A DNA stretch of 64,000 bases, taken from assembly GCA_947034895.1 (NCBI GenBank), contig OX344763.1, forward strand, positions 4,032,501 to 4,096,500, given 5' to 3'. A program made the position numbers and the translations under genes. Positions 10,164 through 48,667 of this stretch are shown here, in pieces. Under the pieces are notes generated by a model. It made no database searches. It saw nothing but the letters and a program-made list of their open reading frames with translations, and was not told where the DNA came from. Every line of letters starts with the position of its first letter. Positions within the stretch are counted from its first letter, which is position 1. The stretch is from Rhytidiadelphus loreus (Eukaryota > Streptophyta > Bryopsida > Hypnales > Hylocomiaceae).

Positions 10164-10324
10164 CAGGGTTGTTCGCTGCGACAGCGCGACACCGCGACAG
10201 ACAGACGTCGCGCGATGTCTAGTAGAGCCCGCGCGACGTCACGAAAAGTCAAATTTACCTTTGACTTTACAGGAAATTACCCCCCTCCAGGTGGATGCCA
10301 CATGGCATCCACTTGGCAAACTAG

Positions 10325-10640
10325 AGGGCGCGTACGGGTAGGAGAGTGCGGGTAGGGGTGACTGCGGGTGGGCGACTGCGGGTGGACGAGGGCGACTGCG
10401 GGTGGGCGACTGCGGATTTCTGAGGGAGACCGCGGGTGGGTGACTGCGGGTTTGGCAGGGAGACCGCGGGTTCAGGAAGTGTTCTTAGGTGGGCAACCGT
10501 GGGTGCGCAAAAGGTACCTAGACCCGGTGGTGGACCCGAAGTCGCCCAATTTGGACCCGCTGTCGCCCACGTCGGACCCGCAGTCGCCCTACCCAGACCC
10601 GCAGTCGCTGGATACGCAGTTGTCCTATCCGTACTCGCCC
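10325..10640. repeat. GCAGTCGCCC repeat cluster, left end of element 2 and upstream of RING gene
   Basis: First about ten copies of GGGCGACTGCGGGT (plus orientation, to about 10500), then copies of the complement (GACCCGCAGTCGCCC, to about 10640), so the cluster has a head-to-head arrangement. A CTATATAG box follows at 10663-10670. Confidence 0.9.
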
Positions 10641-10662
10641 CCCTAGACCGAAGTCACTCGCC

Positions 10663-10670
10663 CTATATAG
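10663..10670 (+). promoter_or_regulatory. Probable TATA box of element 2 RING gene
   Basis: CTATATAG lies 155 bases before the ATG at 10825 and directly after the repeat cluster. Confidence 0.45.
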
Positions 10671-10824
10671 CCAGTAGCCCATCATCATGCTATCACCTTC
10701 ATTTTCCATTGAGGTTTTCTGTCTTGCAACCTTTGTTGGCTGCATGCGTGACCCTTTTGGATAATATATATACTATTTTTTGCTATCATTTGGTTCTTAG
10801 AATTTTGCGACGTCCGCAAATGTC

Positions 10825-13332
10825 ATGGCAATTGGAGGTAGCAGTGATGGGTCCCTTCCGGTTTTTTCCACTGTACGCACTCCTGGTGCATTTAGGAAGG
10901 CTGCCAAAGACAAGACTAGAAAAAGGAGGGGTAACATTCACAAGAAGCGATGGCATGTGTTGAACGATGATAACCACCTAGCTTTCAAAGAGTGGAACGA
11001 GGAGCCAGAGCCTTGGAGTATGCAGGTGTGCGAAGACTACATTGAATGGTGTCACATCGGGAAGTTCTTTCCGGTATGGCGCCATCATCACAACCGACAC
11101 AATAACAAGGCAAATTTGAAGTATTGTGAAAATCCAGCTTTCATACGAAGGTGTTTAGAATTGTGGCAGGTCCTCTACAAAACCCCTTTTGTAGATAGGA
11201 ATGAGGCCCCTTTGTTCATTGCTAGAGGTGCCTATACTGAGGTCGCCTTGAACAAACAAGTTGACTGGACCACGATTAAAGAAAGTACCTACGTGGAGCG
11301 TCCAGAAGTTGGAATAATTCCAAGAGGGGTTCTCAAATTTCCGGAGGGTGGACTTGGGCCTTTTCGAAGTGATCCACAAAACAAAGAAACTCAAGAGGTG
11401 GACACGGAAGAATCAGAAGAGGATAATGATTCAGATGGCACACGGATTCCTAAGCTTGTACGAGTGAAGGAGCAGATTATCACCCCCGTCCAAGTTCCAG
11501 TTCCAGTTCCAGTTCCAGATCCAAATGTTCAAGCCGCTTCATCATCGCGGGGAAAGAAGATGAAACATCCTGCGAAGGTGCGACGGTCCACCACGAAAAT
11601 TAGATTGGCATCAGCCTCAACCACAATTGCGACTCCAATCTTGCCACCACAAGACGCCAGCAACGTCTTCGACTTTGCTTTAAGTGACGACTCACCCGTA
11701 TGTGCCACAAGTCACATTCCCATTCCACAGTCTGAATCTGATGTTGTTCACAATGCGATGACGTTGGCGAAGGCTCTCGACCTCTTGAAGACCAAGGATG
11801 CACAAATTGCAACCTTAGAAGGTGATGTGAAGAAATGGCGGTCTACATGTGAACAAAAAAATGCTCTCATTTCTCAACAATCCAAAGAATTACAAGGCCT
11901 TCGAGAAAAAGAGCGTCAGACTTTCACATTGTCGGACATGGACGAAACCTTTGTTGAGCAGGATCCACATCACTTGGACAAGCTTGTTGGGGACCTCACC
12001 AGCGATGTCATTCACCTTTCTCCCCCTGCCAAGCGTACAAAGCATTCTTCAATTCTTCCAATGGCACCACTTCCGTTCGTCTCAAGAGATTCTAGCAATC
12101 CGCACGTTGATGGTTTGCAAGGGACTCAGGATTCACTTTCGTTTCCTGCCATTCCACATCTACAATCATCAAAGGAACTTGATTTGGCTGAGGAAAATAG
12201 AATGCTTCGAGAGAAGTTGGCAGTGTTGGCAGCGACATACTATCATTGGAAGGTCGCGTGCATTCTCTCCGTGGATCGATCTCAACAAGTTGCGAAAGAG
12301 CTAGACAAAGTTTCGAAGAACTTTGTAGCAAATGCCCCTAAACGAGAGAATGGATTGACATCATGGGCATTGATGGAGGACATGTTTCCGGATAACATGT
12401 CCATGCTTGACGTGGCGGAAAAAAATGTCATAGACTGGGCACAAAATGGTTGGGACCATGGAAATCAGATGTCTAGTCACTTCAACGAAAAAGACCAAAG
12501 TCTATTGTGGCCAAAGCCAGCTCATTTCGTCTTGGATCATACCAAATGCCCCATATGTCTAGAACAATTTGGGCCAGAAGGAGGATGGGCACTTGGATCA
12601 TGTACACATGTGTACCATCCTCAGTGTCTCATCACTCAATGTCTGATTAGACGACGATGTGTGATTTGTGCAGCACCATTCCATGATCGCTTGTATACCA
12701 TGTTCAACTTGATGACTTACATGCCACCTTCTTGGGAACACAATAGAGACACGACGGTAGAGACACGATTTTGGGGACGAGACTTGCTTTGGAGTTGGCG
12801 AGAAGGCCTACATGATCAAGAAATGGGAGCTGCTGCCTCACAATTGAATTGGGAAACGGACCTGCGTGAAATTCTAAGAGTGGCATTCAACCTTATGGGA
12901 AAAGGAGCTCACAATGTAGGGAAGAGGGCGTTTTTTTTTCAATGCCTTGGTGGATATTTTGATAAGACATCCCAAACCTTCAAGTGGGGTGCTCATCCGG
13001 AAGGACACCGTTGGAATTTTGAAGGTGAACAAGGGGCTAATCGTGATGAAAATGTCACTCCAGAAGACTTGAATAGTATGGCTTACCTCGACTCAACATA
13101 CGGGCCTTATTATCAAAGCCAAGCACTCGATTATCTATTGGAGTTACACTCTCCGCAAACTAAAAGGACACTTGAAGCTCTCAAGAACTCCAATGTCTTG
13201 GAATCTATTTTAGAAGCAGATGGACCTGCTTCAAGGACTCGTGCTAAGAAGAAACTCGTTGTTGGAGAGTCCAATGATTACGAACAAGGTGCAACGAGTG
13301 GTTCTCATAACAATCCAATGGACTTGAACTAA
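10825..13332 (+). CDS. RING-H2 E3-ligase-like protein with unrecognised N-terminal domain and coiled coils (element 2)
   Basis: Intact single-exon ORF of 835 residues. Order: basic nuclear-localisation-like stretch (about 25-42, FRKAAKDKTRKRRG), a conserved domain at about 50-155 shared with three other proteins in this window (W-C-H-I at 75-78, N-K-A-N-L, V-D-W-T-T at 147-151), an acidic linker, a short Pro-Val repeat (223-231), coiled coil (about 310-365 and 455-500), then a RING-H2 finger: C575-x2-C578-x14-C593-x-H595-x2-H598-x2-C601-x10-C612-x2-C615. About 220 residues follow the RING and are conserved in the element 1 copy. RING-H2 fingers usually recruit E2 ubiquitin-conjugating enzymes, so ubiquitin ligase activity is likely; the substrate is unknown. 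A nuclear role is inferred. The first ATG in frame after the TATA box is used as start. Confidence 0.85.
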   Translation: MAIGGSSDGSLPVFSTVRTPGAFRKAAKDKTRKRRGNIHKKRWHVLNDDNHLAFKEWNEEPEPWSMQVCEDYIEWCHIGKFFPVWRHHHNRHNNKANLKYCENPAFIRRCLELWQVLYKTPFVDRNEAPLFIARGAYTEVALNKQVDWTTIKESTYVERPEVGIIPRGVLKFPEGGLGPFRSDPQNKETQEVDTEESEEDNDSDGTRIPKLVRVKEQIITPVQVPVPVPVPDPNVQAASSSRGKKMKHPAKVRRSTTKIRLASASTTIATPILPPQDASNVFDFALSDDSPVCATSHIPIPQSESDVVHNAMTLAKALDLLKTKDAQIATLEGDVKKWRSTCEQKNALISQQSKELQGLREKERQTFTLSDMDETFVEQDPHHLDKLVGDLTSDVIHLSPPAKRTKHSSILPMAPLPFVSRDSSNPHVDGLQGTQDSLSFPAIPHLQSSKELDLAEENRMLREKLAVLAATYYHWKVACILSVDRSQQVAKELDKVSKNFVANAPKRENGLTSWALMEDMFPDNMSMLDVAEKNVIDWAQNGWDHGNQMSSHFNEKDQSLLWPKPAHFVLDHTKCPICLEQFGPEGGWALGSCTHVYHPQCLITQCLIRRRCVICAAPFHDRLYTMFNLMTYMPPSWEHNRDTTVETRFWGRDLLWSWREGLHDQEMGAAASQLNWETDLREILRVAFNLMGKGAHNVGKRAFFFQCLGGYFDKTSQTFKWGAHPEGHRWNFEGEQGANRDENVTPEDLNSMAYLDSTYGPYYQSQALDYLLELHSPQTKRTLEALKNSNVLESILEADGPASRTRAKKKLVVGESNDYEQGATSGSHNNPMDLN

Positions 13333-15004
13333 ATATTTCTATGAGATACTTACTTCAACGGTGGTTCTAGTTAATCGTAGTAGTATACAAGATGTAAGGC
13401 CCATAGTATAAGGGCCATAGTATATCCATACTCGCACAATGTAGTACTCTAGCAAAAGTTAGGGTTCAGATGTTGGCTTCTAAAACTATACCGCCTTGGC
13501 TGTGTATTGTACTACTATGCTTATGGACAACAACCTTCTATTGCTTTGGTTTTGAAGGTTTGGGCATACTTATACATTTGTAGCCTAAAATGTAATTGGT
13601 GAAATGCAAATACATTTGTTGTAATGCCTCGCACAATGATTCCATACACGGTCCCCACAAAATTGCTATCTTCAAATCTTTTAATGAATTTTTTCCTTTT
13701 GGATTTTTTTCTCATACAACATGTATTTGTTTACATGGAAAAATTTGATTCATTCCATTCAGATTTTTTATGAGAAAGTTATGGACCATTTTGTTTGGTG
13801 GGCAACTTGAGTCTACAGCTTCTTCTTTTAAAAGTTGCTTGTAGGATTTGTTTCTCCAAGCAATTTCTACAATCTAAAAAAAAATTAGGTCCGGTCACAT
13901 AGTTAACTTCACTTGATAGCACACTCTCACCATTTTCATTTCATTTTAGAGATATTCATTATTTAAATTCTACAACTACATCTTACCTACTTCTACTCAA
14001 CAATTTCTTAAAGTATCCAAAATTGTTTTTGAAAATTGTTTTTTTCCCACACATAACCATAGGATCTTACACCTTACTAGTATGAGAATGTGTGGAAAAA
14101 ATTTCAGAATTTTTCATCTTACAGATTGCAAGATATCCGCATTTAGAGTGAAAAAAACAATTTTTTCAGCACATTGCTGGACTACATTATTTGACTTTTA
14201 ACATTTTTCACTTTAATTTCTTGCACTACAGAGTTTTGAGCTTTAAACAAATATAGTGGAGAATTGAGTTGAGAGTCTAAATAAAAAAAAGGTTTTCAAA
14301 AAAACTTAATTTTCATTCTTAAAAAACTTGTAGAATAGAAGTACATATGAGATTGAATGAAAATCTATTTTCTTTCTAAGATAGAATTAAAATGCACTAA
14401 TCCCCATGGTCAAATTGTTGTTGCAAGCAAACTAAACCATGTCAAACTTCTTTTCTTGAACAATTGCCAAAATTGCGTTCCTAAATTAATCTTACAAGGT
14501 ATTTTTCCCACCAGAAGCTCTAATTGCCGAATAAACAAGATTGTCCATAACTTTCTCATAAAATATCCAAATGAAATGAAAAAAAGCTTTCCGGATAGAC
14601 AAAATTATAATCTATGAGGGAAAAAAACTTAGAAAAATAAATTCAAATGCTTGTCACATTTTTTTGCTGCCCATTCTCCCCTGCTTTGGAGTTTGGACTA
14701 TATGGGCATAACTTTTGTTCCCGGGCACCGATTGGAAAAAAAGTTATATTACCACAAAGGTAATCGTTTTTTCTATCTTCAAATAAAGTTTCAAAAATTC
14801 AGTCCCAAATTTCAGCCCGTAGGTACCATCTCTGACATCCATTCTTGCAAAGACACCAAATTCATAGCCCTCGTATTCAAAATATAATAAAAACATATGT
14901 ACATTTCAAAAACAAAGGTGTGAATTTCTTTATTCCACAAAACCTTTGGAAAATCAAAAATTGGAAGGCCAAATTGTTTTTTTCTACCACACTAGATCCA
15001 ACCA
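13333..15004. other. AT-rich convergent spacer between RING gene and RING-less paralogue
   Basis: The 3' ends of the two convergent genes face each other here. No further gene is supported; ORFs such as 14357-14617 (+) are short and have no recognisable motif. Confidence 0.5.
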
Positions 15005-16504
15005 CTAAGCATTTTTTTCACTATTCACAAAGTCACTTTCTTTGGGCTCTGGTCTCATTCTTTGAAGTTCTGCACGGGTGGCACCTATGCCTTCATAGGC
15101 CCACTTGCGCCATTCCTTAAAATAAAGGATGTGGCGCTCCAAGTCCAATATGCCCTCGTGCAACAACTCTTGTTTTTTCTCCAGTAGCTTCACCAAATAA
15201 AAAAGCATTGCTCTTTCTTCTGTATTGCTACCATAATCCGGAGCTAAAGCCAAGATGCCCTCTTTTTTGGCTTCTTTTAAGGCATCATCATTATATTCCA
15301 TCTCTAGCTCACGTATTTGAAGATTCAAGCTTCTCCTTTCGCTTTGATGGGACCATTTATCACGTTGCAAAAGATCAAGTTTATTTTGAAGCACCGCTAA
15401 ATCATCGGAAATGTGTGCTCGCCCGTCTTCGATCTTCTTGAAATAATTTACTCTACTTTTGTTTAACTTAGAGTAAATCTTCTCATTTTCAGCAACGGCG
15501 TTTTCAGTCGCCTCTAACTCCTTCTTCAACCCATCCACAACAGTTGGATTCACTGGAAGATGTTGTACCTTCTCTTTCAAATTCATAAGATCCGCTACTG
15601 TTGAAGTCAAAGCTGCTCGTGCACTTTCGATCTTAGTGCCCAACATCTCCAAATTGTCTTCCGAATCATTGTCACTACTTCCGCTAGACCCAATGTCTGC
15701 ACCAGAACGGTCCACATTGATCGGTACATGAACATCTTCGCTTTGTTTTTGAATCTTGGACAATGATTGCGGCTCCTCAAGCTTCCTCTTGCCCTTCTTG
15801 TCAACTTGAACGTCTTCAGCCGCCTCTTGTTTTTCTTTGCCAATGTCTTCGTCGTCACTCTCAAAAGAATATCCATCGTATTCGTGAGTATGCTCATCTG
15901 AGCTAGAAGTTGAAGACCATTGAACTTGGTCATCACCAACAGCCAACTTGCCAGGCTTTGCCTCTAAAAGCTTCTGATTTGCTTGAAGAAGTCCTTCTTC
16001 ATCCAGCACTATCGGTCTGTCCGGGCGGTCACCGATAGGAAGCTCCTTCAAGGTTGTCCAATCTACCTTTTTCTTCAATTGAACTTCAACGTACACCATT
16101 TGCACAAGATAGAAAGAGAAGTTGTCATTTCGATAAGGCTGGGACTCCAAATAGAGTTGCTGCCATACCTCCAAACACCTTCGCTGGAAGACAACACTCT
16201 TGCAGTAAGCCAAATTTGCCTTATTAGACTTCACGTGCAAAGGGTGTTGCCAAAACGGGAACAACTTGTTGATGTGGCACTAATCCACATATTTGTTTAC
16301 AGTTTCATATGTCCAAGGCTCTGGTTCTACTTCCCATCCCCAAAAGGCCTTCATCTTTGGATGCAACAAGATGGGTACACGCTTCTTGCGAGGTTTGCCG
16401 CTCCTCTTACGATCCTTGTCACGAACCGCCTTTTTGTTGAGCCGAAGTCGGTATCTTGACATACCGTGTGGCGGTTGAGAGTCCTCGCCCTCCATAACGA
16501 TCAC
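15005..16504 (-). pseudogene. RING-less coiled-coil paralogue with one in-frame stop (element 2)
   Basis: Continuous minus-strand reading frame of about 499 codons from ATG at 16504 to 15005, broken only by TAG at 16280-16282. N-terminal basic stretch (KKAVRDKDRKRSGKPRKKR), then the shared domain (W-G-W-E-V-E-P-E-P-W, C-H-I-N-K-L-F-P, N-K-A-N-L, V-D-W-T-T-L), an acidic Ser/Asp-rich linker, and a long coiled coil that fills most of the C-terminal half. There is no RING. The stop falls exactly where the paralogues have Trp (W-C-H), so TGG to TAG is the simplest cause. If translation restarted downstream, the product would lack the basic region and the first part of the domain. Role unknown; it could dimerise with the RING proteins through coiled coils (inference). 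Upstream lie the conserved promoter block and a repeat cluster. Confidence 0.8.
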
Positions 16505-16717
16505 TTCGTCTCAAAAGTAGCCAACTAAGTACTATGCGGTTTAGGGTTGCAAGCCTAAACCGTAGGTGTAAAAAATGCTAAATGTAATCCTATCACATTT
16601 AACATTTACAAAAATACAATGTTCTCGTGAAACACCCTATGTCATCCAAGCGTGAATAAAATGAGCCGTGCAAAGGGACAAAAATCCCCCCCCACAACTC
16701 AAACCCCTAGCTTCTGT

Positions 16718-16758
16718 GCACGCATTCAGCCACGTCAGCAGGTGAAAGACAGTGCGCA
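16718..16758 (-). promoter_or_regulatory. Conserved promoter block, copy 1
   Basis: The plus strand reads gcacgcattcagccac, five variable bases, then aggtgaaagacagtgcgca. The same block occurs at 20626-20668 and, inverted, at 25481-25523, each time between a repeat cluster and a cargo-gene start and in the same orientation relative to the gene. Confidence 0.65.
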
Positions 16759-16782
16759 GAATGCCAGGGAAAATTTAATGGC

Positions 16783-17185
16783 GACTGCGGGTGGAGGAGA
16801 ACGCTGATGTACCCGAGGTCGCCCCTGGGGCGCGTGCGGGTCCTGAAGTGGGGCAAGTGCGGGTCAGCCCAGTGCTCCAGGGTGACCGCGAGTCCGGAAG
16901 TGGGGCGACTGCGGGTCAGCGCAAGTGCTCCAGGGTGACTGCGGGTCCTAGAGTGGGGCGACTGCGGGTCTGGACAGGTGCTCCAACGCGACCGCAGGTC
17001 GAAGGAGCCCGGGCGAGTGGGCGACCGCGGGTCCAGGGCGACTACGGGTCCTAGGCGACCGCGGGTCCAGGACGACCACGGGTCCACTTTGCGAAGGCGA
17101 CCGCGGGTCTTGGGCGACAGCGAGTCCTGGGCGACAGCGGGTCCTGGGCGACCTCGGGTCCCAGGCGACCGGGGGTCCATCTATT
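16783..17185 (+). repeat. GCAGTCGCCC repeat cluster upstream of RING-less paralogue
   Basis: Roughly twenty copies related to GGGCGACTGCGGGTCC, all in plus orientation, spaced irregularly by 10-30 bases. Confidence 0.9.
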
Positions 17186-17189
17186 AATG

Positions 17190-18940
17190 CATGGACTTTT
17201 CTTTTCTTTCTTAGTACATGTTTATAGATTGTGATATTTTTTTCCATTTTTCCTTGCGCTGGGAAAGTGGCGATACTAAATGTTACGGAGGGGCTCCAAG
17301 CTTCAACATTCATCCACGTACTGGATAGAAAATGTGATACTAAGTATCTAAAATTCTATTTTCATTTACATTGTGGCGATTTCATCGAAGACTTTTCTAG
17401 AAGTTGAAGTTTTTCTAGCAATTTCATCCAAAATTTTCCTAAAAAATTCCTATAGCTTATAGCTAGCCTAAATTTTTTGTTGCTTTTGAGCACCAAATCT
17501 CAAGGGAAAAAAAAAGGATTGTGAGCTCAATCCCATTTGTGTTGCAAAATTTATGGAATACTAGTTTATACTTTATACTATATTTGGGGAGCCATTAGGG
17601 TTGAGGTCGGTTGTGGTACAAATGGATTCCTTATTGATTATCTGAACAAAAGTTAAATCTTTGCAATTGTTTTAGAAGAAGTTCTTGTTAACTAATTTTT
17701 TTCTTATTAATTAATTTCATTGTTAATGACTAATTTTATTGTAAATGACTTATTTCATTGTTAATGACTAATTTTATTGTTAATAACTAATTCAATTGTT
17801 AATAACCAATGTTATGATTATTAAGTATTAACCATTGCAATTGTAACAATAATGTCTTTGTAATTGTTTTGACATGAGATGTTCATTATGTATTTTTGGA
17901 TGTAGACTCAAATTACATACTATGTTACACACACTAATTTTGGTAAATTACATGCCTAATAACTAAATTTCTTGTACGGACACAAATCTATAAATGAAAG
18001 TCATTGTTGGACTTATATCATACTCCAACCATCTATGAAAGAATGTGTGTTTTTATCAATTTGGATGACATATACCAAAAAAAAGAATATGGTAGGAAAA
18101 CATTATGCTACTAGGAATAATATATATGGTAAAACCAGATTTACATTTATTATTGAATTCATCCAAGTTTTCTCGAATTGCGTGTTTAATAAATGACAAA
18201 GATTATGGCTACATATCTTTTTTGCAATATCCACTCTTGTTTCATTGTCTCAAAAAAAAAAAGGGGTCGCAAGAAGTCAATGAACTTCCTTTTTCCAAAT
18301 AAAATAAATAGGAAGAGAGCGAAAAAGGTTAAATAAATAAATAAAAACATCTCTCATCTATTTTGAAATAGGTAAAGTACGAATAAAAAGGAAAAGTCTA
18401 AAAAAGTCTAAAATGTATGTTTCCTATATTTGAATTAGAATAAATAGGAAAAAAAAACCAACTTGCTTTTATTTTTGGAAATAGAAAAAATAATAAGAGA
18501 ATGTAAATGATGTATGGCTTACATTTTTTTAGAGATTGAAAAAACAACTATTTGAATTCAATGACCATGAAAGTAAAACTCCTTTCAAGTGCATACTAGC
18601 ACATTTTATTCAAGAAATAATACAAGTCTTCAACATCAATTACCAACTAATTTATTTTCATTTTCTTATTTTCCTTGCGTCCATTATATACTACGGAATC
18701 AAAAAGGACCAAGGACATTTGAATTCAAAAGTTGTTATACTTTGCATAACAATGTGTAAAAGGCCATATTCAATATATACAATTTGACAAATAGCCCATT
18801 GAGTAATTGTTTTTCTAAAGACAAGGCGCGTAGCATAAAATTCCTTCATATATTATAGGAAAATATTACAAAGTAAGCAACACATAATTGGCCACCAAGC
18901 TCATTGCTTGCAGCACTAAACTCTTGCTCTAGACTATCCT
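17190..18940. other. AT-rich spacer of element 2
   Basis: Very AT-rich, with a short internally repeated tract at about 17690-17830 (ttaatgactaattt variants). No gene supported. Confidence 0.5.
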
Positions 18941-18941
18941 A

Positions 18942-20534
18942 TTACAAAGGTGAGTCTCGGAACACCAATTCGGGGGGCATCATGGACCATGGTGGAGACA
19001 TAAGGGAATTTGTGATCTCTATACACGTTGGTCTCTTCTTTGGGTCAGTGTTCACGAGTTCACGCAACTTCATTCCAAAGTACATTGATCCCTCGCGGTT
19101 CTTGAACAAATCCTTGTCCCAATCGTCCATATCACCAATTCTCATCCATTCGGTCAACTTCCCAATAGAATACGAGTCTGACTGTTGCGTATATTTATAC
19201 CGTTGTTGCATGATCGGTATGCTTGTATCGGAATTTGGAGGTCCATATGCATAAAACAACTCCGGGGCAACCCACCAACGACCTTCTCGGTATTGATCCC
19301 TCTCGGCCTCAGATGGCTTTCCAAAATGTGAAGGCGCGTTTTCGTCAAAACGACTTGATATTCCAAAATCACAAATTCCAATGTTGATTATGTCGTTTGA
19401 ATAATCCGGAAAATGCAACATGATGTTCATGGGAGACAAGTCATTGTGTAGCACGCGGCACTTGTGCATGAGATTTGTCACATATACTAAAGCCCATGCC
19501 AACTTTGCCTTGTGCCTTCGGAAGAGACCAAGTTCTTTTTGTTTCTCTTCAGGAAGTCTTGTGGCTTTTTGCATTTCATGCCAGTCAATGGTTGGTGATA
19601 CAGAACGATCTAAATGCCTCAACTCATTCAAATGGCCCCCATTCCACCACAAAGTGTACGCTTCATTCGTGCGAGAATGAATGGCAAAAAACTTAATGAT
19701 GCCAAGGTGGTTCAAGGGGCATGCAAGGGCCTCCATGGATCGTTGCGCTCTCCCCTCGCGCTGGTTTATTGCCTTGGATACTTTCCCAGCAAAAGCGATG
19801 TAGCTTGGAATTGTATCCATTCCTTCAATGCGTACCTTACGCACTTTTGCATACCCCCCTTCACGTTCAAAAGCACTAAGGGGCACCACTTTCGCCGTAT
19901 CGGGGATCCACGTGATACACAATCCACCATCTCGTGCAAATGCTGCCTGCACCGCTGCATTTTTCCACTTAAAACCCCTTGCCGAGCCTCTTGCCAATTT
20001 CTTCACTGCGCTGGACCACCACTCCATTTTTTGGCGGAATGCCTTGATGTCTTCTGATTCCTCTACTATCGGAAGAAACGGTCGATGTTCCTCCATCAAT
20101 TTCTTGGTATTGAACATCACTGCTTTCAATGTGTTATCAAGCCATTCAAATAGTCTCGAAGAATATGTCAAGTCAATGTCTGCGAAATCATCGGATCCCT
20201 TTAGCTTGGTTAAAATCCGTGCTTGTAAATCGTTTGGCAAGGCCACACTACCAGTTGTAGGACACCTCAAATAGCTTGCCTCCAAGAATTGTACACTTTT
20301 CCCTGCGTACCACTGGAGACACGCTTCGTATGCATATCGGGTATAACTCGGGGGAGGATAGTTGGAGTCCTTGTCATGTGCTGACTTCTGCTTCTTGCCC
20401 TTCCGTCGCTCTTGACTCCCTCCTTCTTCATTTTCATTTACAGCTATCGGAACCTCGAAAAAAATTGGATCATCGAGGTCCAGATCCCATAAAGACTTTC
20501 TCCTTGTAGTGTTGCCTTCATGTGGAAAAGCCAT
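18942..20534 (-). CDS. Atypical protein kinase (element 2 cargo)
   Basis: Intact single-exon ORF of 530 residues. The N-terminal 200 residues are unrecognised apart from a basic patch (ERRKGKKQK, 42-50). The kinase domain spans about 215-505: Gly-loop-like E-G-G-Y-A-K-V (225-231), catalytic loop H363-N-D365-L-S-P-M-N370, D389-F-G, A423-P-E425, D-S-Y-S-I-G (453-458) and the final conserved Arg (R501). The catalytic Asp, Asn and DFG are all present, so phosphotransfer is plausible; H-N-D instead of H-R-D and the family as a whole are unusual. A homologue (41766-43441) sits in element 1, so the kinase is a standing component of these elements. No membrane segment or signal peptide is visible. 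Substrate unknown; the transposase or RING proteins are candidates (inference). Confidence 0.85.
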   Translation of the reverse strand: MAFPHEGNTTRRKSLWDLDLDDPIFFEVPIAVNENEEGGSQERRKGKKQKSAHDKDSNYPPPSYTRYAYEACLQWYAGKSVQFLEASYLRCPTTGSVALPNDLQARILTKLKGSDDFADIDLTYSSRLFEWLDNTLKAVMFNTKKLMEEHRPFLPIVEESEDIKAFRQKMEWWSSAVKKLARGSARGFKWKNAAVQAAFARDGGLCITWIPDTAKVVPLSAFEREGGYAKVRKVRIEGMDTIPSYIAFAGKVSKAINQREGRAQRSMEALACPLNHLGIIKFFAIHSRTNEAYTLWWNGGHLNELRHLDRSVSPTIDWHEMQKATRLPEEKQKELGLFRRHKAKLAWALVYVTNLMHKCRVLHNDLSPMNIMLHFPDYSNDIINIGICDFGISSRFDENAPSHFGKPSEAERDQYREGRWWVAPELFYAYGPPNSDTSIPIMQQRYKYTQQSDSYSIGKLTEWMRIGDMDDWDKDLFKNREGSMYFGMKLRELVNTDPKKRPTCIEITNSLMSPPWSMMPPELVFRDSPL

Positions 20535-20625
20535 GTTGTACTTAGGAACAATTCAAAACCGTAGTTCAAAATTCGTAGATTGAAAGGGTAAAAATTCCCC
20601 CCCCAATTGAAACCCCAGCCCACGG

Positions 20626-20668
20626 GCACGCATCCAGCCACCTGAAGGTAGGTGAAAGACAGTGCGCA
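20626..20668 (-). promoter_or_regulatory. Conserved promoter block, copy 2 (kinase gene)
   Basis: gcacgcatccagccac, then aggtgaaagacagtgcgca, about 90-130 bases before the kinase start, between the start and the repeat cluster. Confidence 0.65.
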
Positions 20669-20689
20669 AGGCTAAAGTAAGGTGAGAAT

Positions 20690-21030: not shown

Positions 21031-21059
21031 AACAACCAATCTGACCCAACACTAATTAG

Positions 21060-21650: not shown

Positions 21651-21659
21651 TGAAACATG

Positions 21660-38149: not shown

Positions 38150-38439
38150 TCTTGATACCTGCACAATGACACACACGATATTGTATGCGAATACAATGAC
38201 AATTTGTTTTGCCTTCTGTTGCGTGAAGGCAACTGAAATGTGGCAAAACAATGTCAAATGTATAACACTTCCCCTCAAATTGCAATGCGAAGCTTTCTCA
38301 AGCTAGGATAGTGCAATTCAAAAGAGGAAGCAAGGGCAAATGTGAAAAAAATGTCACTTATACCCCCCAATTACCGACCCGGTTAGCAAGGGTAATTAAC
38401 ACCTAATCAGCCCGTCCCCCCCAAATCCAGACCGTCTAG

Positions 38440-38890
38440 GGCGGGGGACAGCCCTGGAATGGACGGCCGATCCATCCACGGACGTCCGGCCTCGGGTCGG
38501 AACGCCGTCAACAAGTTTGGGGCGCCGTCTCTAAGTTCGGGGAATGATTACACCGCCGCCCGAGAGTTCGACGGACAGCCTTTCCGTCCTCTAGACGGGC
38601 TGCCCGTCCCCTCGACGGCCTTTCCATGGAAGGGGACGGGCTTTCCGTCCCCTAGATGGCCTGGATGTGGGAGGAGACGGGCATTCCGTCCCCTCGACGG
38701 CCTGGATGTGGGAGGGGACGGGCTTTCCGTCCCCTCGACGGCCTGCCCGTCTCTTCGATGGAAAGCCCGTCCAGGAGGACGGTCTGCCTGTATCCTTGAC
38801 GGCCTGTCCCTGGTCGGGAACGACCTACCCATCCTCGCGACGGCCTGTTCGTGGTCTGGGACGGCCTTTCCGTCCTCTGGACGGCCCTTC
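38440..38890. repeat. CGTCC repeat cluster upstream of element 1 RING gene
   Basis: About twenty copies of a unit like CCGTCCCCTCGACGGCCTG, many of them imperfect palindromes (CCGTC…GACGG). A longer unit (ggatgtgggaggggacggg) is duplicated near 38663 and 38703. Same motif family as 41345-41560 and 48190-48620. Confidence 0.9.
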
Positions 38891-41340
<2,450 letters not shown>

Positions 41341-41344
41341 ACGT

Positions 41345-41560
41345 CTCGCTCGACGACCTTCCCGCCCTCTCGATGGCCTTTTCGTCTCTCGAGATTCTTC
41401 CTGTCCTCTCGACGACCTGTGCCGTCTCTCGAAAGTCTTCACGTCCTCTGGACGGCCTGGCCCCCTGGACGGCTGGTCCGTGGGGGGGGACGGCCTTCCC
41501 GTCCTCTGGACGCCCTGTTCGTCCTCTCGACGGCCTTTCCGTCGACGTGAAATGGGTATA
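41345..41560. repeat. CGTCC repeat cluster upstream of element 1 kinase
   Basis: About ten copies of CCGTCCTCTCGACGGCC-like units ending 10 bases before a TATATAAA box. Confidence 0.88.
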
Positions 41561-41564
41561 TAAA
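41557..41564 (+). promoter_or_regulatory. TATA box of element 1 kinase
   Basis: TATATAAA directly after the repeat cluster and about 200 bases before the ATG at 41766. Confidence 0.6.
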
Positions 41565-41765
41565 GACTGTTTTTAGGGTACTTTCGCCACAGTCTCTTCT
41601 GCTCTGACGGTGCTCTCTTGTCTTGGATTGGTTGCAGTCCTTGCTTGCGAGCGCGGGTGCTGGGTAGAGGCTGGTTTGAGGAATAAGGGGGGCGGTTTTT
41701 CACTTTGTGGAAGCCGAATTCCTAATTCCTATCATTTTGATTATTTGTTACTTGTTACTGTCACG

Positions 41766-43441
41766 ATGGCTGGTCAAGATTTCTCAAAGAGAAAAGTTGA
41801 TGATTGGTACACAGGTATTGGAAATGCACCGATGATGGACCCGGATGCAGAATCACCAGAGCCCGTTTCAGAGGCCGTAGTTGCAGAAGGGTCCGTAGCT
41901 GCAGAAGGGGCCACAGCTGCTGGGGGGGCGGAGAGTCTTCGAAGGGGAAAAAAAAACGAAGGAGGCACAAGGCTACAAATCCGGAGAAGTGGCCAAGCAA
42001 GGGTGCAACGCAAAAATTGCATGAAGTGGCGTTGGATTTTTTTGAGCAGTATTCGATTTCGCAGTTGAACACAACATACGTCTCGCGCGGATTACAGGGA
42101 GTGGATGTCATAAAACAAAAGTTCCACCACATGTTTTGGACAACAATGAGCGCGGATGAGTGGCATGAAGACTGCACGAAAGAATGCTTCGATCATTGGT
42201 TGGAGTCACAAGTACAAACGTGTATCTTCAACCTTGCCCAAGTTGCGGAAAAAATAAAAGGCTTTCAGAAGAGTGTAGTGCCCAGACAACAAGCATTGAA
42301 TTTGTTGCACAAGAAGGTGTATTGGTGGCATGAAGCAATGCGTGGACTATCTTCAAACAACATCCGTTCCACTCCGTGGTTTCAACGAAGTCAAAATTTG
42401 GCCTTTGGTCAACAGGCTGCAGGAGGAGTGGTTTTTCTTGAACGCGGAGTGGTGGTGGTTCCTTTGTCTGGCCATAGCAAACAAGGGGGGCATGGGAGGG
42501 TGCGCAAAGTATGTGTTCAAAATTCAAAATATATTCCGGAGAATATGGAATTAGCTGGGAAGTCAGCTTTGCGCGTGGATGAATTGAAGAAGTCCAGGGA
42601 GAAGTTGTCCATCGAGGCATTGGTATGTCCATGCGAGCATCCAGGGGTCATCAAATTCTTTGCTATAAATGATATGACCATGGAGTGTTATTTGCAGTGG
42701 TGGAATGGCGGTACTCTCGGCGCCATGTTTACACTGGATGAGAAGAACCGAGATCCAGATGAAATTGGAGAGGTGGCTTACGATGCAACTCCACAAACAA
42801 TGCAAGCCATGAAACGACTCATGGCATATAGACCCAAGCGCACTGAACTTGCGTGGGCAATGATTTGCATTGTGGATGCAGTGCAACAATGCTCTGTATT
42901 GCACAACGACATCACACCGGAGAACATTATGCTTCATTTTCCGAATAATGATGGCAGAACCGTGTGGATTGGTCTATGTGATTGGGGAATGGGTAGCCAC
43001 ATCAACGAAGAAATCCCTTCTCTTTACCAATTCAATTGTCCAAGGAAGTTGCAGGCAACCCGAGCGCAACGTTGGTGGGTGGCTCCTGAGTTGATGTACT
43101 TGACTGGAGAGACAGGAACTTCATCATCTCCTACTCGCAGGGTTAAGCCACCGTGTGTTAGTATACACACAGATGAATACTCCATAGGCAAATTGGCTAT
43201 GAAGGTATGGAAAAAAGATCGCGGAAATCTAGAGATGATTCCGGACCATACGGCATTTGGTGCATTTCAAACTATGTTGGGTGAATTGTGCAAGGTGGAG
43301 CCACTACAACGACGCTCGGTGACATACGTCGTGCAACGTCTAAGTGGTGCTCCAACGTTTTGGACACCAGCTGTGGATTGCTATCGCGAGGCTCGCAAAG
43401 AACAAGACCTTCAAGAAGAGCAAGCGCGCAATGAAGATTAG
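41766..43441 (+). CDS. Atypical protein kinase (element 1 cargo), one frameshift in a G7 run
   Basis: The best start is ATG 41766 (M-A-G-Q-D-F-S-K-R-K); its frame runs to the run of seven G at 41922-41928, after which the real frame is the one open from 41804 to 43441 (545 residues if counted from 41804). A one-base indel in the G run, or a sequencing error, explains this. Numbering from 41804: basic patch 47-56 (K-G-K-K-K-R-R-R-H-K), Gly-loop G228-G-H-G-R-V, possible Lys in A-G-K253, catalytic loop H367-N-D369-I-T-P-E-N374, D393-W-G in place of DFG, A427-P-E429, D-E-Y-S-I-G (457-462). The catalytic Asp and Asn are kept. Homologous over the kinase domain to the element 2 kinase, with the same W-W-N-G-G and R-W-W-V-A-P-E-L motifs. 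Confidence 0.82.
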
Positions 43442-43444
43442 ATA

Positions 43445-44785
43445 ATAGTGTATTACCATATAGTTGCAAAGTTAGTGTTTACTTAGCACATGCGGTTATT
43501 ATAATGTAGGCTTGAGGACATACGTAGCAATGTAGCACACTTTGTGGCTTCAATGCATTTTGTACTCATTTTGGTTTATATAAAGATATAAAAGTATTTT
43601 ACCTAAACATTGAGTTGTAAAGAACTTATTGTCTTTCCTAACTTTATCATTTAAATTGAGTTTAAACAAAAATCTTATATCTTTAGTACTAAAAACTCTG
43701 AATTGTATATCATTATAAGAAATTCCAATTAGTTTTGTGCACAATTGTAATTGTCATCATTTTTGTTGCACTTCGTGCCATAAATAAGTAAAAATAGAAA
43801 AAACAACTCACGAGATTCTAAATTTTTAGTTTTTTACAAGAGGTACAAATATCAATAGAGATTTCTAGTCGAACCAATTTTCAATTGGTTATTTTAGTTT
43901 TCACACCCGAAACTAATAAACAACCACAAAGACGGGCTTGAAGTCAAATTTCACTATCAAACCAAATTTATATTTTTATTGAAAATCAGCATAATATTTT
44001 AATATTTCTCCCCACTCGTAAGAATTTATTTTAAATTTATTTTATTTTTTTCAGAAAAATTAATGGAAAAATGAATTTATTGTGATTTTATAAAGCTAAA
44101 CGTGGAAATCAAATTTTATCAATTAGAATATGTATCAGAATAACCGGAAACTCTTATCATAAAGTCATAAACGAAGGAATGAATGAAAAACATAGTTTTA
44201 GAATTTTAATTTTAATTAAATTTGAAAAAAAGAAAACATACATGAAAAAAACACCAAACTGTCTGACTGTGTTATTTGGATTTTAACACCTGGAGTTTTC
44301 AATTGCAATAACTCTTTCAAATTTTGACCTCGATTCTTTCGTATTCACAAAAAAAAATTCAAAAACAATATTGCTCCAAACTCCAAAGGCCTAATTTTCC
44401 ATAAATCGTAGTGAAAGTTAATTTGAAATTGCAAAGCCCGCATTCAGAAAACTAGTTCTTCCAAGTTTGAATGCTAATATCTTTCAATCTATTCGGTCAA
44501 ACTTCATGAAATTTTTTCCACGTGATAAAAAACATGTGAAGTACAAGATCTTACGGTTAGATGTTGTAAAAAACATTTTTTTCCACATGTTGAGGCAAAT
44601 GCAAGAGAAAAAACAGTTTTGCGTCCCTTTTTGTGTAATGACTTTGGGACTTTAGGGGTAAATAGTTCCATGAGAATGAAAGGAACCTAAGTCATATTTC
44701 ATATTAATGCTGATTTCAATATGCAAGGTATTGAGCCTCTAAAAAATTTGCATTTGAAAATGTGAAGACCCTATTGTTTTTTCAA
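43445..44785. other. AT-rich convergent spacer between kinase and transposase of element 1
   Basis: No gene supported; includes the spacer repeat copy at 44466-44580. Confidence 0.5.
44466..44580 (+). repeat. Spacer repeat, copy 2
   Basis: Related to 9390-9530 in the same orientation (gaatgctaatatctttcaatc, cggtcaaac, acaagatctt). Confidence 0.6.
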
Positions 44786-44791
44786 AAACAT

Positions 44792-47700
44792 TCAACGTCT
44801 TCCATGCCTAAGAATGCGCACAGAAGTATTTGCATTTGCTTCTTGTACTATTGGTTCATTACCACCAATTTCTTCGAGTGGACCTTGTCGAGGCACCGGC
44901 CCCCTGTAATCACTATCTCCTGGAACCTCACCATCTTCACCTATAGTACCACCAATGGATGCACCATCATCATTGGAATGATTGGATGGTGCACTATCAC
45001 TTTCGCTGGAGGCCTCAGAATTGCGGTTTCGTTGTGGTCGAGCTATAGAAGACAACATCCAAAGAGGTCGTTGGCCCGTTGCGTCCATAATGCCATCTAT
45101 ATTGGGCCCTCCCGTTTGAACTTCTCTTAAAAATGGTTGCGAAGCCGCTTCTTCCCTCCTCAGCCTTCTACGTGCTCTAGTATTCACACGTTCACTGGTA
45201 GTACCTTGTGGTCGGGGACGCTTCCCTCGATTATTGGCATGTACAGGTGGCCGCAATGAATTCGTATTTCTACTCACACGTTGTGACACCATACCAGCCA
45301 ATCGTGTACCTACCAACGAAGTTGGTTCGCGTGGACGAACTTCGGAACTAGACGGCCTTGATGAACTTTGAATTTGTAGATTTTCCAATACTGGCATCTG
45401 CCGTTGTGCAACCGAGACTCGATTTGGAGGGGGCATATGTGCTTCTCCACCTTGAGGGGGCCCTTCTCTACGAGTGGTCCTCATAGGCAAGGACGGTGGT
45501 ACTACTACTTCTTCTTCACGTCCTCTTCCAACGTCAACCCCATCTCTGTCTATTGTGGCATCAATTTGTACATCCATAGGGTCTGGACTTAGTGGTCTCG
45601 GTGCCACAACGTCCTTATTTGTATTGCCCCCACTTGGCCCAGCATTCCACGTTTGTGGCATTCGTGGTGGACTTCCTTGATGTCCCTCGGAGGCATTGTC
45701 GTTATTATCCCCCTCTTCAAAGTCAAATACGGATGCATCAATTAGAGGACGCACTCCTCCAAACCCACGAAATCTATCAAATGGTGGCTCATCATCGTCA
45801 TTGGAACTATCATCTGAATCGTCATCATCTGGATCAGAGCGAACCGAACCACGGTCTAGACCATCAGATTCATCTGTCATGGAATCCTCTGACATCATGT
45901 TTTCAGTGTACCACCTTGTCGGATTTGCTGCAGCCCTTTCTCTTAGAGTCTTGGAATTGGTATAAATGTAAACCAATTCCTCAGCACGCTCAGATGTCAA
46001 TCTATTACGTGATTTGTTGTGGACAAACGAATACATGCTCCAATTGCGTTCACACGACGATGCAAAACACACTTGTGCGAGGATCTTTTTGGCAATCGGT
46101 ACAAGTGTATGAGCACCGGCTCCGAGAAGGTCCCACCATTCGTGAGGCTGCAGATTCAAGGTGTTTACATCAGGGAGTCCACTGAAAATGCCTCGCCGAT
46201 CTCTAAATGCTTGGTACTCAGACAAAGCTGACGCAAATGCTTGATCTCCAACCGCCAATTTGCGCAAAACCCTCAATATGGCTTCTCTTGCCTCATCATC
46301 ATCCATTAGCAAGACTTCGTCAAGTAAAAAGGGATTCAATAGAGCCCCGGCGTAATGCAAATCCGTCCTGAGCATGTCCCAGCGCTTGTAGAAATCATCG
46401 ATGGCGGAAATTGCATACCGTGGCTCTAATGAAAATGGTGGATCCCTCAAAGATAAAACATGCTTTTCCACCTTTTTCATCACAAGCCATGCCTTGTCCA
46501 AGCACGGGTGCTTTCCATCAAACTCTCGAAGAGCCATCAACACGGGCTCCACTATGTGCACAAAGTTTAAACATCTCCTCCAAAATTCATCCGTTCGCAC
46601 ATATCGTCGCACATCATTAGCTTTTCTTTGCTTTTGACTGGATGCCAATCTCCGCGTGTACTCATTCCACTGCGGATCGTGGACTGTCAATTCTACCGCT
46701 TCCCTCACCTCCACCAAACGTTCGATCATGAGGAACATGGTTGCAAAGCGTGTTTGAACGGGATTTTTCAAAACGTAATTAGGAGAATGTCGTCGAAAGA
46801 TTGCAAGTGGCATGTGATGCGTTCGAATGTATTTCACAATTGACTTGGCTTTCTTGACCATACTTGTAATCCAATCTTGTTTTCCCCAATCTTCAAGTAG
46901 AAGGTCAAGTGCAAGTGCTGAACACCCTTGAAAATATATGTGTGGAAATCTACGAATTAATAGAGCGCCAGCGGCCAACATGTTTGCTGCATTGTCTGTA
47001 CAAACTTGTACCACGTTTTGTGCCCCTACCTTGTCAATGTAATCACCCATGCAATTAGCCACGTAAGTAGCATCTTTGCATTCGCCTGTTGTGTCTATCG
47101 ATCCAAGAAATACCTCTCCACTTGTACATGCCAACATGACATTCATCAATGGTCGATGTGTCACATTATCCCATCCATTAGAGCATATTGTAACGCCATA
47201 CTTGTGGATTGGTGCCCTTGTCTTCTTTGCTACAATTGTTGCCACGTCATCTTTTGTAGATTTTATGAGCTTTGTACGAAGTGCATGGTATGCTGGAGGT
47301 TTGTAGCCAACTCTCGATTCCGATGTTGATTTCACTGCATCCAGAAAAGCAGGATGCCTCACTACATTGAATGGTATATTGGCTTCATAGAAAAACTTAG
47401 CCCACTTCTTGTCTAGTACTTGCTTGTTTGATGCGTTCATTCCATCTTGTACAGACAATTGCCTCATCGATCGATTGTGGGTCAAATTAGGAATGGGCGC
47501 CTCCGATGATCGTACTTGAGAGCTTTGCCCCCCAGTGTTTTCTCCTCCATCATTTACTGAGATTGAAGCATTAGGTTGTTGCTCGCCATGTACTACACTT
47601 GGTAGTATCGTTGATGGTGATGTCACTTCCACGTCGCGTCCAGGTCCATGTGAAGTGTCCGTAGGTATATGTCCTCCACAATTCCAAAACATTACCTTCA

Positions 47701-47992
47701 CGGTTGCATTGACTTTAGTGCACGCTCTCACTCCCTGGACGGTGTCGTTTCGTCTGTATCCCAAATGGAAAAGCAACCGATCCTTTCAGTAGCTTAGCAA
47801 AGTTTCGCAAAACTTGCAAGCAATTTTTCCATCTAGCCGTAGTGTGTACCAAGGTTCCCACTGTGATCTTCCTCCACCCATTGCTCTTATCTGTCCTCCT
47901 CTACTTGCCCCTGCACCAGAAAAAAGATTAGTATTCTGTTTGAAATGTAATGTGGCAACAACACTTGTTGCTCTCACAACAAGTGCCACCAC
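44792..47992 (-). pseudogene. hAT transposase, DUF659/hAT-C type (element 1), inactivated
   Basis: One minus-strand frame of about 1067 codons from 47992 to 44792, broken by TGA at 47786-47788 inside the BED-like zinc finger (W-E-P-W-Y-T-L, C-K-F-C before the stop, H-L-G-Y after). Downstream of the stop, 994 codons are open. The DUF659 core matches the element 2 transposase (V-T-I-C-S-x-G-W, V-C-T-D-N-A-A, L-L-L-E-D-W-G), but the first catalytic aspartate is replaced: C-S-N-G-W-D-N here against C-S-D-G-W-S-D. The hAT-C block is present (W-W-D-L-L, S-S-C-E-R-N-W-S-M-Y, H-N-K-S-R-N-R-L). The C-terminal 350 residues are acidic and low in complexity. With a stop and a lost catalytic residue, this copy is probably not active; the element would depend on a relative. 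Confidence 0.85.
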
Positions 47993-48096
47993 AACACACT
48001 CTTCTTGGACTTCGCTCTACCGCAATGGTTGTACTCCAACCAAGACATGAAAGGCAAAATCAGCAAGGGAAAGTAATCTTGAATAGGCGGAAGTCC

Positions 48097-48104
48097 TTAA
48101 TATA
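48097..48104 (-). promoter_or_regulatory. Possible TATA box of element 1 transposase
   Basis: TATATTAA on the minus strand, between the gene start (47992) and the right-end repeat cluster. Confidence 0.4.
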
Positions 48105-48189
48105 CACCTTGAAGCCCTCCCTAAAACCCTAAACCCTAAACCTAGCTAGACGGACATCCGGCTGATGGGGTGGACCCTAAACCCGCAGC

Positions 48190-48620
48190 CCCGCACCCTA
48201 AACCGTCCAAGTGGCGACTGTCCCGTCCAGCGATATTCCGGTCCAGGGGATGGGACAGATTCCCGTCCTATGGACGGTTTCCCATTCAGAGGACGGATTC
48301 GCGTCCAGGGGACGGATTACCATCCTGGAGACGAGAATTCCGTCCAGGAGACGACCTCTTCGTCCAGAGACGGGCTCTCCGTCCAGGGAACGGCTTACCG
48401 TCCAGGGGATGGCTTATCGTCCAAGGGACGGCTTACCGTCCAAGGGACGGATGGGCTCTCCGTCCAAGAGACGGATGTCCATTCGGCGACGGAATGACCG
48501 TCCAGGAGACGGCCCGACGCCGTCGCAAACTGGACAGACTTCATCCGCGCCGCGGATGGTCCTGTCAATATCGGCGACGGGCTGTGACGCGTCAGGTTGC
48601 GTCCGGACGGACGCGTCATG
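48190..48620. repeat. CGTCCAGGGGACGG repeat cluster, right end of element 1 and upstream of its transposase
   Basis: About twenty copies of CCGTCCAGGGGACGG-type imperfect palindromes with a period near 18-20 bases. Confidence 0.9.
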
Positions 48621-48657
48621 ACATTCGGACGTAAAAAGCCAACGTCACGTCCGGATA

Positions 48658-48667
48658 GACAACCCTG
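48658..48667 (-). repeat. Right terminal inverted repeat of element 1
   Basis: GACAACCCTG, exact complement of 7429-7438. Confidence 0.85.

What the first reader, a model, noticed from the sequence alone, without database searches (positions are those of the whole stretch)
10164..48667. Undescribed cargo system: transposase + atypical kinase + RING/coiled-coil protein, conserved in two elements
Two separate elements with different repeat families carry the same three protein types. Conservation of a kinase and a RING protein beside a transposase implies they serve the element, for instance by controlling transposase stability or phosphorylation, evading silencing or changing host chromatin. 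I know of no named transposon superfamily with this gene set; that is from memory, not a search.
Basis: partly seen in the sequence, partly recalled or inferred. Interest (0 to 1): 0.93.

Follow-up and report, generated by a model that had tools for sequence, protein, structure and literature searches.

The report
Giant plant transposons with kinase toolkit
Two giant transposons of the hAT type (predicted to move by cut-and-paste), one sitting inside the other in a plant genome, each carry a kinase gene and a RING-protein gene beside the transposase gene (broken in the outer one here), and these helpers are likely part of a private control system that keeps such elements expressed and moving.

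Summary
The window contains two giant hAT elements, nested rather than separate: element A (10164-32622) lies inside the RING gene of element B (7429-48667). Both have CAGGGTTG ends and 8-bp target duplications (B exact; A one mismatch, but exact in the two of six read sibling copies that show both ends). Both encode a DUF659/hAT transposase, an unusual protein kinase and a RING-H2 coiled-coil protein; A adds two RING-less paralogues. In the window B's RING and kinase genes are broken and its transposase has lost an acidic residue; another B copy has the whole RING gene but for one stop. A third family, C, shows the same kinase-transposase pairing. Among capped lists, kinase and transposase families match one to one (20, 40, 24 close pairs; mixed pairs 0-2); A's left end occurs 379 times. 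Family-private motif arrays precede every gene of A (91 motifs in A, 0 in B) and, more weakly, the genes of B. This resembles, without detected homology, VANC/VANDAL anti-silencing and fungal transposons carrying kinases or TET. Within-family variation looks neutral; selection is inferred only from deep conservation. Function is untested. Seven literature searches aimed at this gene set listed no description.

The parts
7429..48667 (.). Element B, giant hAT transposon, interrupted by element A and by a ~3.5-kb insertion (about 15.2 kb of its own sequence)
   Evidence: CAGGGTTG at 7429 (+) and CAACCCTG ending 48667; 8-bp TSD ATGTCAAT at 7421-7428 and 48668-48675; aligns to a clean 15.5-kb copy with TSD ATTCCGCT on both sides
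10164..32622 (.). Element A, giant hAT transposon (22.5 kb), nested in element B
   Evidence: CAGGGTTG / CAACCCTG ends; flanks GGCGCACG 10156-10163 and GGCACACG 32623-32630, one mismatch; of six sibling copies read, 5 show the left end, 3 the right end, 2 both, and those 2 have exact 8-bp TSDs
10825..13332 (+). A: RING-H2 / coiled-coil protein, 835 aa
   Evidence: Pfam zf-RING_11 2.2e-5, zf-RING_2 1.1e-4, both just below curated cut-off; RING match at E<=1 in 12 of 13 aligned members including this one
15005..16600 (-). A: coiled-coil protein 1; 15005-16099 is the open ATG frame, its N-terminal domain continues upstream (start near 16600, approximate) past one stop in this copy
   Evidence: six of six sibling copies have no stop at that codon
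18942..20534 (-). A: protein kinase, 530 aa
   Evidence: Pfam Pkinase 2.4e-11; AlphaFold2 model mean pLDDT 82.5, kinase fold at residues 202-519; 81 genomic copies listed, a lower bound
25699..27306 (+). A: coiled-coil protein 2, RING-less paralogue of the RING protein's N-terminal domain
   Evidence: 38% identity over 150 aa to the RING protein
28299..31154 (+). A: hAT/DUF659 transposase, 951 aa, SDGW / CTDNA / CERNW motifs present
   Evidence: PF04937 2.8e-35, PF05699 5.1e-5; motifs
10341..10609 (.). A motif array (12 ACCCGCAGTCGCC-like sites) before the RING gene and next to the left end
16780..17176 (.). A motif array (15 sites) 5' of coiled-coil gene 1
20714..22331 (.). A motif array (30 sites) 5' of the kinase gene
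25113..25435 (.). A motif array (12 sites) 5' of coiled-coil gene 2
27802..28047 (.). A motif array (9 sites) 5' of the transposase gene (and 3' of coiled-coil gene 2)
32113..32433 (.). A motif array (13 sites) at the right end
36692..38149 (-). B: RING/coiled-coil gene, first part (N-terminal domain, coiled coil); continues at 33154-32622 and 10166-9897
   Evidence: tblastn of the RING-protein pieces of a clean B copy, 91-98% identity over the pieces
32622..33154 (-). B: RING/coiled-coil gene, middle part with the RING (two frames)
9897..10166 (-). B: RING/coiled-coil gene, 3' part, separated by element A
33155..36691 (.). ~3.5-kb insertion in B's RING gene, ends TGTCGCAGC...GCTGCGACA, flanks CATAC / CGTAC
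41766..43441 (+). B: protein kinase gene; 42131-43441 is the open ATG frame, the likely start at 41766 lies in another frame (frameshift in this copy)
   Evidence: Pfam Pkinase 1.4e-8; 96 genomic copies listed, a lower bound
44792..47881 (-). B: hAT/DUF659 transposase (open ATG frame 44792-47692; start by comparison 47881); SNGW instead of SDGW in this copy
   Evidence: PF04937 1.5e-37, PF05699 2.2e-7
38573..38886 (.). B repeat array 5' of the RING gene
   Evidence: self-comparison and tandem-repeat finder; 14 motif sites in the matching place of the clean copy
41349..41543 (.). B repeat array 5' of the kinase gene
   Evidence: only 2 strict motif sites in the clean copy
48253..48512 (.). B repeat array between the transposase start and the right end
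   Evidence: 3 strict motif sites in the clean copy
7639..8044 (.). B repeat array next to the left end
   Evidence: 32 motif sites in the clean copy

Best explanation
The window holds two nested giant hAT transposons from families that each pair a transposase with its own kinase family and encode a RING protein, and these accessory proteins likely form a family-private control loop that keeps the element transcribed and its transposase active. Shown here: ends, target duplications, copy number, one-to-one pairing of kinase and transposase families among the listed copies, conserved kinase and RING residues, and motif arrays private to each family placed in front of all genes of A. Inferred: the transposase moves the element by cut-and-paste. 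One or more element proteins (most likely the RING/coiled-coil proteins with their shared N-terminal domain, or the transposase's own zinc-finger-like N-terminus) would bind the arrays. There the RING protein would act as an E3 ligase and the kinase would phosphorylate the bound complex or a host silencing factor, so that all genes of the family are switched on together and only for its own members.
For: Mobility: six A copies read outside the window align over their remaining length at about 93-99%; left end in 5, right end in 3, both in 2 of 6, and those 2 have exact 8-bp TSDs GTTAACGT and TTGAGGAC; B TSDs ATGTCAAT and ATTCCGCT exact in 2 of 2; left A end 379 times genome-wide with <=1 mismatch, reversed control 0. 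Core-gene status: listed kinase-transposase pairs within 15 kb A-A 20, B-B 40, C-C 24, mixed pairs 0-2; the 40 B pairs all lie 3.45-3.47 kb apart on opposite strands, random expectation 0.64; 19 of 20 transposase-chosen B copies carry the kinase. Deep conservation: A and B kinases are 30% identical, yet K251, E268, H363, N364, N370, D389 are invariant in 25 sequences and D365 is kept in 23; they fall in separate supported clades. RING proteins of A and B share N- and C-terminal parts at 30-31%; Pfam RING match in 12 of 13 aligned members. Control arrays: 91 A motifs, all in clusters 5' of the five genes or at the right end, none inside genes, 0 in B and 0 in 22.8 kb of flanks; sibling copies have clusters at the corresponding places as far as they are read, counts varying. 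Analogy: VANC binds a short motif accumulated as tandem repeats that differ between families (PMC5735166, passages seen).
Against: No binding, ligase, kinase or expression data. Variants among 20 kinase-B sequences look neutral (normalised N/S 1.01); the lower value for kinase A (0.50 normalised, 0.295 uncorrected) comes from copies chosen by kinase score. D365, the usual catalytic base, is N in 2 of 25 aligned kinases. The arrays of B are strong at the left end and before RING but weak before kinase (2 strict sites) and transposase (3); B's largest array is terminal, not in front of a gene. Arrays could be transposase-binding or promoter repeats only. Listed transposases lie within 30 kb of a listed kinase in only 23 of 48 (A) and 25 of 41 (C), partly because lists are capped, but truncated copies exist too. 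RING co-occurrence could not be counted genome-wide (tool busy), and family C's RING gene was not looked at. The RING model was poor (pLDDT 47).
Confidence: 0.5

Rival explanations
1. Autonomous giant hAT elements whose kinase and RING proteins regulate the transposase itself (phosphorylation, ubiquitin-dependent turnover, copy-number control), the arrays being ordinary transposase-binding subterminal and promoter repeats with no role against silencing.
For: Same anatomy and pairing data; arrays also lie at the ends in both elements, as in Ac- and Spm-type subterminal repeats (recalled).
Against: Arrays sit in front of all five A genes, also far inside the element, more than end recognition needs; transposon-borne sequence-specific anti-silencing has the same repeat logic.
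Confidence: 0.3
2. Passenger cargo: host kinase and RING genes captured once and carried along without helping the element.
For: Gene capture by plant DNA transposons is common (established knowledge); within-family variants of kinase B are neutral.
Against: Both types are kept in families whose kinases are 30% identical, with catalytic residues conserved; kinase lineage tracks transposase lineage; the profile search returned a closed set of 70 proteins, weakest E 2e-69, with no tail into host kinases at the sensitivity used.
Confidence: 0.12
3. Remnant of an endogenised large virus whose genes were taken over by a hAT end pair.
For: Multi-gene cargo with kinase and RING is typical of large DNA viruses (established knowledge).
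Against: No viral hallmark gene above a curated cut-off among the ten frames scanned; a scan of viral contigs with the kinase found nothing (close relatives only).
Confidence: 0.03

Closest known systems
hAT superfamily (Ac, Tam3, DUF659 type)
   Same: Transposase domains PF04937 and PF05699, 8-bp TSD, short CAGGG-type ends
   Different: 15-23 kb instead of a few kb (Ac 4.6 kb: start of abstract of PMC3260210 in the listing), and extra kinase and RING genes with array-type upstream regions
Arabidopsis VANDAL elements with VANC anti-silencing proteins (PMC5735166, passages seen; PMC10398659, listing only)
   Same: Multi-gene plant DNA transposon; short family-specific motifs multiplied as tandem repeats in noncoding parts
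   Different: Mutator-type elements (recalled); VANC is not a kinase or RING protein, and no DUF1985 match was detected in the window proteins scanned; binding and methylation loss are shown there, not here
Fungal IS3EU transposons with alpha-kinase and TET/JBP genes; hAT7 with TET/JBP (PMC12730594, passages seen)
   Same: DNA transposons carrying a kinase gene opposite to the transposase, or an epigenetic enzyme beside a hAT transposase
   Different: Fungal; alpha-kinase rather than PF00069-type kinase; IS3EU transposase; the word RING does not occur in that main text
Maize En/Spm (recalled)
   Same: Element protein binds subterminal motif repeats and controls the element's own promoter
   Different: CACTA superfamily; no kinase or RING

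Membership tests
hAT superfamily | Transposase with hAT dimerisation domain above curated cut-off | tested here: met
   PF05699 23.4 bits (A) and 31.0 bits (B), cut-off 21.4; PF04937 121.7 and 129.1 bits, cut-off 34.7
hAT superfamily | 8-bp target-site duplication | tested here: met
   B: exact in 2 of 2 copies with both ends read; A: exact in 2 of 2 sibling copies with both ends read, one mismatch in the window copy
hAT superfamily | Short terminal inverted repeats of CAGGG type | tested here: met
   CAGGGTTGT at both ends of A and B in the window; right end of the clean B copy CAAGGTTG
hAT superfamily | Catalytic acidic residues | tested here: inconclusive
   SDGW, CTDNA, CERNW present in A and in the clean B copy, SNGW in the window's B; which residues are catalytic is recalled
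VANDAL/VANC anti-silencing system | Mutator-type transposase | tested here: not met
   The transposases are DUF659/hAT
VANDAL/VANC anti-silencing system | VANC protein (DUF1985) | tested here: not met
   No DUF1985 match at E <= 1 in the ten window frames scanned, among them the five A proteins; B's RING protein was not scanned whole
VANDAL/VANC anti-silencing system | Family-specific motif multiplied in noncoding tandem repeats | tested here: met
   91/0 and 51/1 motif counts between A and B; location at gene starts and ends
VANDAL/VANC anti-silencing system | Element protein removes DNA methylation from family members | not testable with these tools
   No methylation or expression data
IS3EU with alpha-kinase | Alpha-kinase gene beside an IS3EU transposase | tested here: not met
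   Kinases match PF00069 in 24 of 25 aligned members, transposases are hAT
Eukaryotic protein kinase (PF00069) | Kinase fold with catalytic Lys, Glu, HxD, Asn, Asp | tested here: met
RING-H2 E3 ligase | C3H2C3 ligand set | tested here: met
   C575 C578 C593 H595 H598 C601 C612 C615 in A's protein; Pfam matches below curated cut-off; H595 is C in two aligned relatives, and one relative lacks most of the RING
RING-H2 E3 ligase | Ubiquitin transfer | not testable with these tools
   Needs biochemistry

The most novel reading that the evidence does not exclude
A plant transposon clade runs its own sequence-addressed signalling circuit: each family has a private DNA motif code in front of its genes, read by its own RING/coiled-coil proteins, and a dedicated kinase that tunes transposase or silencing machinery, so that related families multiply side by side in one genome without cross-talk.
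Probability: 0.3. Interest if true: 0.87.

Novelty: new variant of a known kind. Interest (0 to 1): 0.68.

Why it matters
A kinase and a ubiquitin-ligase-like protein as core genes of a plant cut-and-paste transposon would add signalling enzymes to the short list of means by which transposons handle host control. Two families with private motif codes and a third with the same kinase-transposase pairing, in one genome, with many copies and some open frames, make it testable how a mobile element stays active in a plant and how such codes diverge.

Tried and rejected
Rejected: two separate side-by-side elements (they are nested). Put low: passenger-only cargo, because of one-to-one pairing and deep conservation. 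Tried without use: purifying selection inside a family (neutral for kinase B; kinase A biased by choice of copies); viral contigs (none); AlphaFold of the RING protein (pLDDT 47) and its fold search (best of 4 matches E 5.6); an early guess from memory that the host is an angiosperm with five chromosomes, given up after the plastid psaB of the assembly scored best against PDB chains 8htu, 6l35, 7ksq (that these are from the moss Physcomitrium is recalled). Genome-wide count of the RING protein: asked, never answered. The kinase fold search lists only kinases; absence of other families there means nothing. Literature: 10 searches in an open-licence library, of which seven were aimed at this gene set and three at the host genome, VANC and KDZ elements. 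I saw listings with starts of abstracts; passages of PMC5735166 and PMC12730594; and a term search of PMC13317346 (a review of gene capture) that found none of kinase, hAT, RING, moss. No description of a hAT element with kinase and RING was seen, but subscription papers and Repbase are not held.

Dropped rows: the seventh fetched A copy (two of three stretches only, L027-L028) was left out; genes truncated in a copy give partial rows or none (6 or 7 sequences per gene). L034 (no kinase) is counted as the miss in 19 of 20. In one search only exact left ends on C1 below 76.5 Mb were used (40 of the 52 listed for C1), and 14 of 15 listed C kinases on C1, because the right-end list stops there. 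The kinase alignment and the tree each use 23 of the 61 relatives found.


Full report
Anatomy. The window is G000:C3:4032501-4096500 of a 407-Mb assembly that also holds a contig with plastid psaA and psaB; psaB scores best against PDB chains 8htu, 6l35 and 7ksq, recalled as moss photosystem I, so the host is a plant and likely bryophyte-like. Two hAT elements are present. Element B spans 7429-48667 with CAGGGTTG/CAACCCTG ends and ATGTCAAT on both sides; element A spans 10164-32622 with the same ends and GGCGCACG/GGCACACG. A lies inside B. Comparison with a clean B copy elsewhere (15.5 kb, ATTCCGCT on both sides) shows that A landed in B's RING gene, whose pieces now lie at 38149-36692, 33154-32622 and 10166-9897, a further 3.5-kb insertion separating the first two.

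Genes. A encodes a RING-H2/coiled-coil protein, two RING-less relatives sharing its N-terminal domain, a kinase and a DUF659/hAT transposase. B encodes RING protein, kinase and transposase. Between A and B: transposases 48% identical over 543 aa, kinases 30% over 401 aa, RING proteins 31% over 348 columns of the C-terminal part and 30% over 120 of the N-terminal domain. The window's B copy looks inactive: kinase frameshift, SNGW for SDGW, split RING gene. The clean B copy has one stop in RING and one in the kinase. A's frames are open except one stop in coiled-coil gene 1, a codon at which six of six sibling copies have no stop.

Copy number and pairing. Searches list the best copies only, so counts are lower bounds: 81 kinase A (98-100% identity), 48 transposase A, 47 transposase B, 96 kinase B. 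A third family C was found by a different kinase query (83 copies listed) and by its transposase nested in an A copy (41 copies listed; 59% to A, 44% to B). Listed pairs within 15 kb: kinase A with transposases A/B/C 20/0/1 (of 81), kinase B 2/40/0 (of 96), kinase C 0/0/24 (of 83). From the transposase, within 30 kb: 23 of 48 (A), 40 of 47 (B), 25 of 41 (C); random expectation 0.53 for A and 0.64 for B. Nineteen of 20 B copies chosen by transposase rank (ranks 2-21 of 47) have the kinase in place. On contig C1, 9 of 14 listed C kinases have the right-end sequence 11.96-14.42 kb away in the right orientation; 8 fall in the 12.0-14.5 kb range for which the chance per site is 0.0017, a range set after seeing the data. 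The A left end occurs 379 times (<=1 mismatch; reversed control 0), the right-end 20-mer 835 times (control 1), the excess being at least partly family C. Of 40 exact left ends on the usable part of C1, 6 have an exact right end at 22.5-23.7 kb, 10 at 5.3-6.6 kb, 12 at other distances up to 45 kb and 12 none within 60 kb: full-length elements and, by inference, internally deleted derivatives moved in trans.

Motif arrays. ACCCGCAGTCGCC (<=2 mismatches) occurs 91 times in A; dinucleotide-shuffle mean 0.2, largest 1 in 20 shuffles. Clusters of 12, 15, 30, 12 and 9 lie 5' of the RING, coiled-coil 1, kinase, coiled-coil 2 and transposase genes, and 13 at the right end; none lies inside a gene. The fifth cluster also lies 3' of coiled-coil 2, which precedes the transposase. 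The six sibling copies have clusters at the same places as far as they are read, with changing counts. In B, GCCCGTCCA (<=1 mismatch) occurs 51 times (shuffle mean 2.45, largest 7): 32 at the left end, 14 before RING, 2 before kinase, 3 before transposase, so the gene-by-gene pattern is clear in A and weaker in B. A's motif is absent from the clean B copy and from 22.8 kb of window flanks; B's occurs once in A and twice in the flanks. Arrays of family C were not looked at.

Selection. Uncorrected pN/pS over all pairs of A copies: RING 0.82, coiled-coil 1 0.55, kinase 0.30, coiled-coil 2 0.59, transposase 0.87. With a context-matched null, 20 kinase-B sequences (19 copies plus the window, chosen by transposase) give a normalised N/S of 1.01; A genes (6-7 sequences, chosen by kinase score) give RING 0.95, coiled-coil 1 0.84, kinase 0.50, coiled-coil 2 0.87, transposase 1.17; only kinase A is below its null (P 0.0165), and it is the gene by which those copies were chosen. 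So copies decay neutrally after insertion, and selection acts, if at all, on the lineage of active copies; the evidence for it is between-family conservation.

Mechanism. Shown: mobility marks, gene set, pairing, private arrays. Inferred: binding of arrays by an element protein, E3 activity of the RING protein, phosphorylation target, benefit against silencing. The nearest worked-out logic is VANC/VANDAL, where an element protein binds short motifs multiplied as tandem repeats that differ between families (PMC5735166, passages); no homology to VANC was detected. Fungal IS3EU elements with alpha-kinase genes and hAT7 elements with TET/JBP (PMC12730594, passages) show that kinases and epigenetic enzymes can ride on DNA transposons. 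Hence 'new variant of a known kind', with a bolder reading in the section on the most novel reading.

Limits. One genome; no expression or methylation data; capped copy lists; no genome-wide RING count; literature limited to an open library.

Noticed in passing
window 33155-36691: A ~3.5-kb insertion in B's RING gene with TGTCGCAGC...GCTGCGACA ends, CATAC/CGTAC flanks and two frames of gag-like or coiled-coil look (34432-35301, 35302-35874 -); element type not settled.
   Followed up: partly
window 60897-61837 (-): Fragments of a different kinase-like protein (Pfam Pkinase E 7e-4, below cut-off; FCHYDVRLPN motif), outside elements A and B.
   Followed up: no
window 62390-62450 (+): CAGGGTTGACCCTGTCACGTC... 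resembles the left end of element B; probably a relic or a further element cut by the window.
   Followed up: no
G000 C1, e.g. 972142-977624, 7254767-7261164, 18093789-18099294: Left and right A ends 5.3-6.6 kb apart (10 of 40 exact left ends on the usable part of C1): likely internally deleted, non-autonomous derivatives; their DNA could not be fetched.
   Followed up: partly
L011 2587-5973 (-), G000:C4:15930307-15933690: Transposase of a third family C nested inside an A copy, 1128-aa open frame; a distinct kinase family is paired with it in the genome lists.
   Followed up: yes
window 40185-40226: Six copies of GTTTAGG (plant-type telomere repeat, recalled) inside element B.
   Followed up: no
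L052-L054 (B copy at G000:C2:26049700-26070400), outside the element: Frames resembling exons of the plant mitochondrial processing peptidase alpha subunit (recognised from memory) lie about 2.5-4.4 kb from the element's left end.
   Followed up: no
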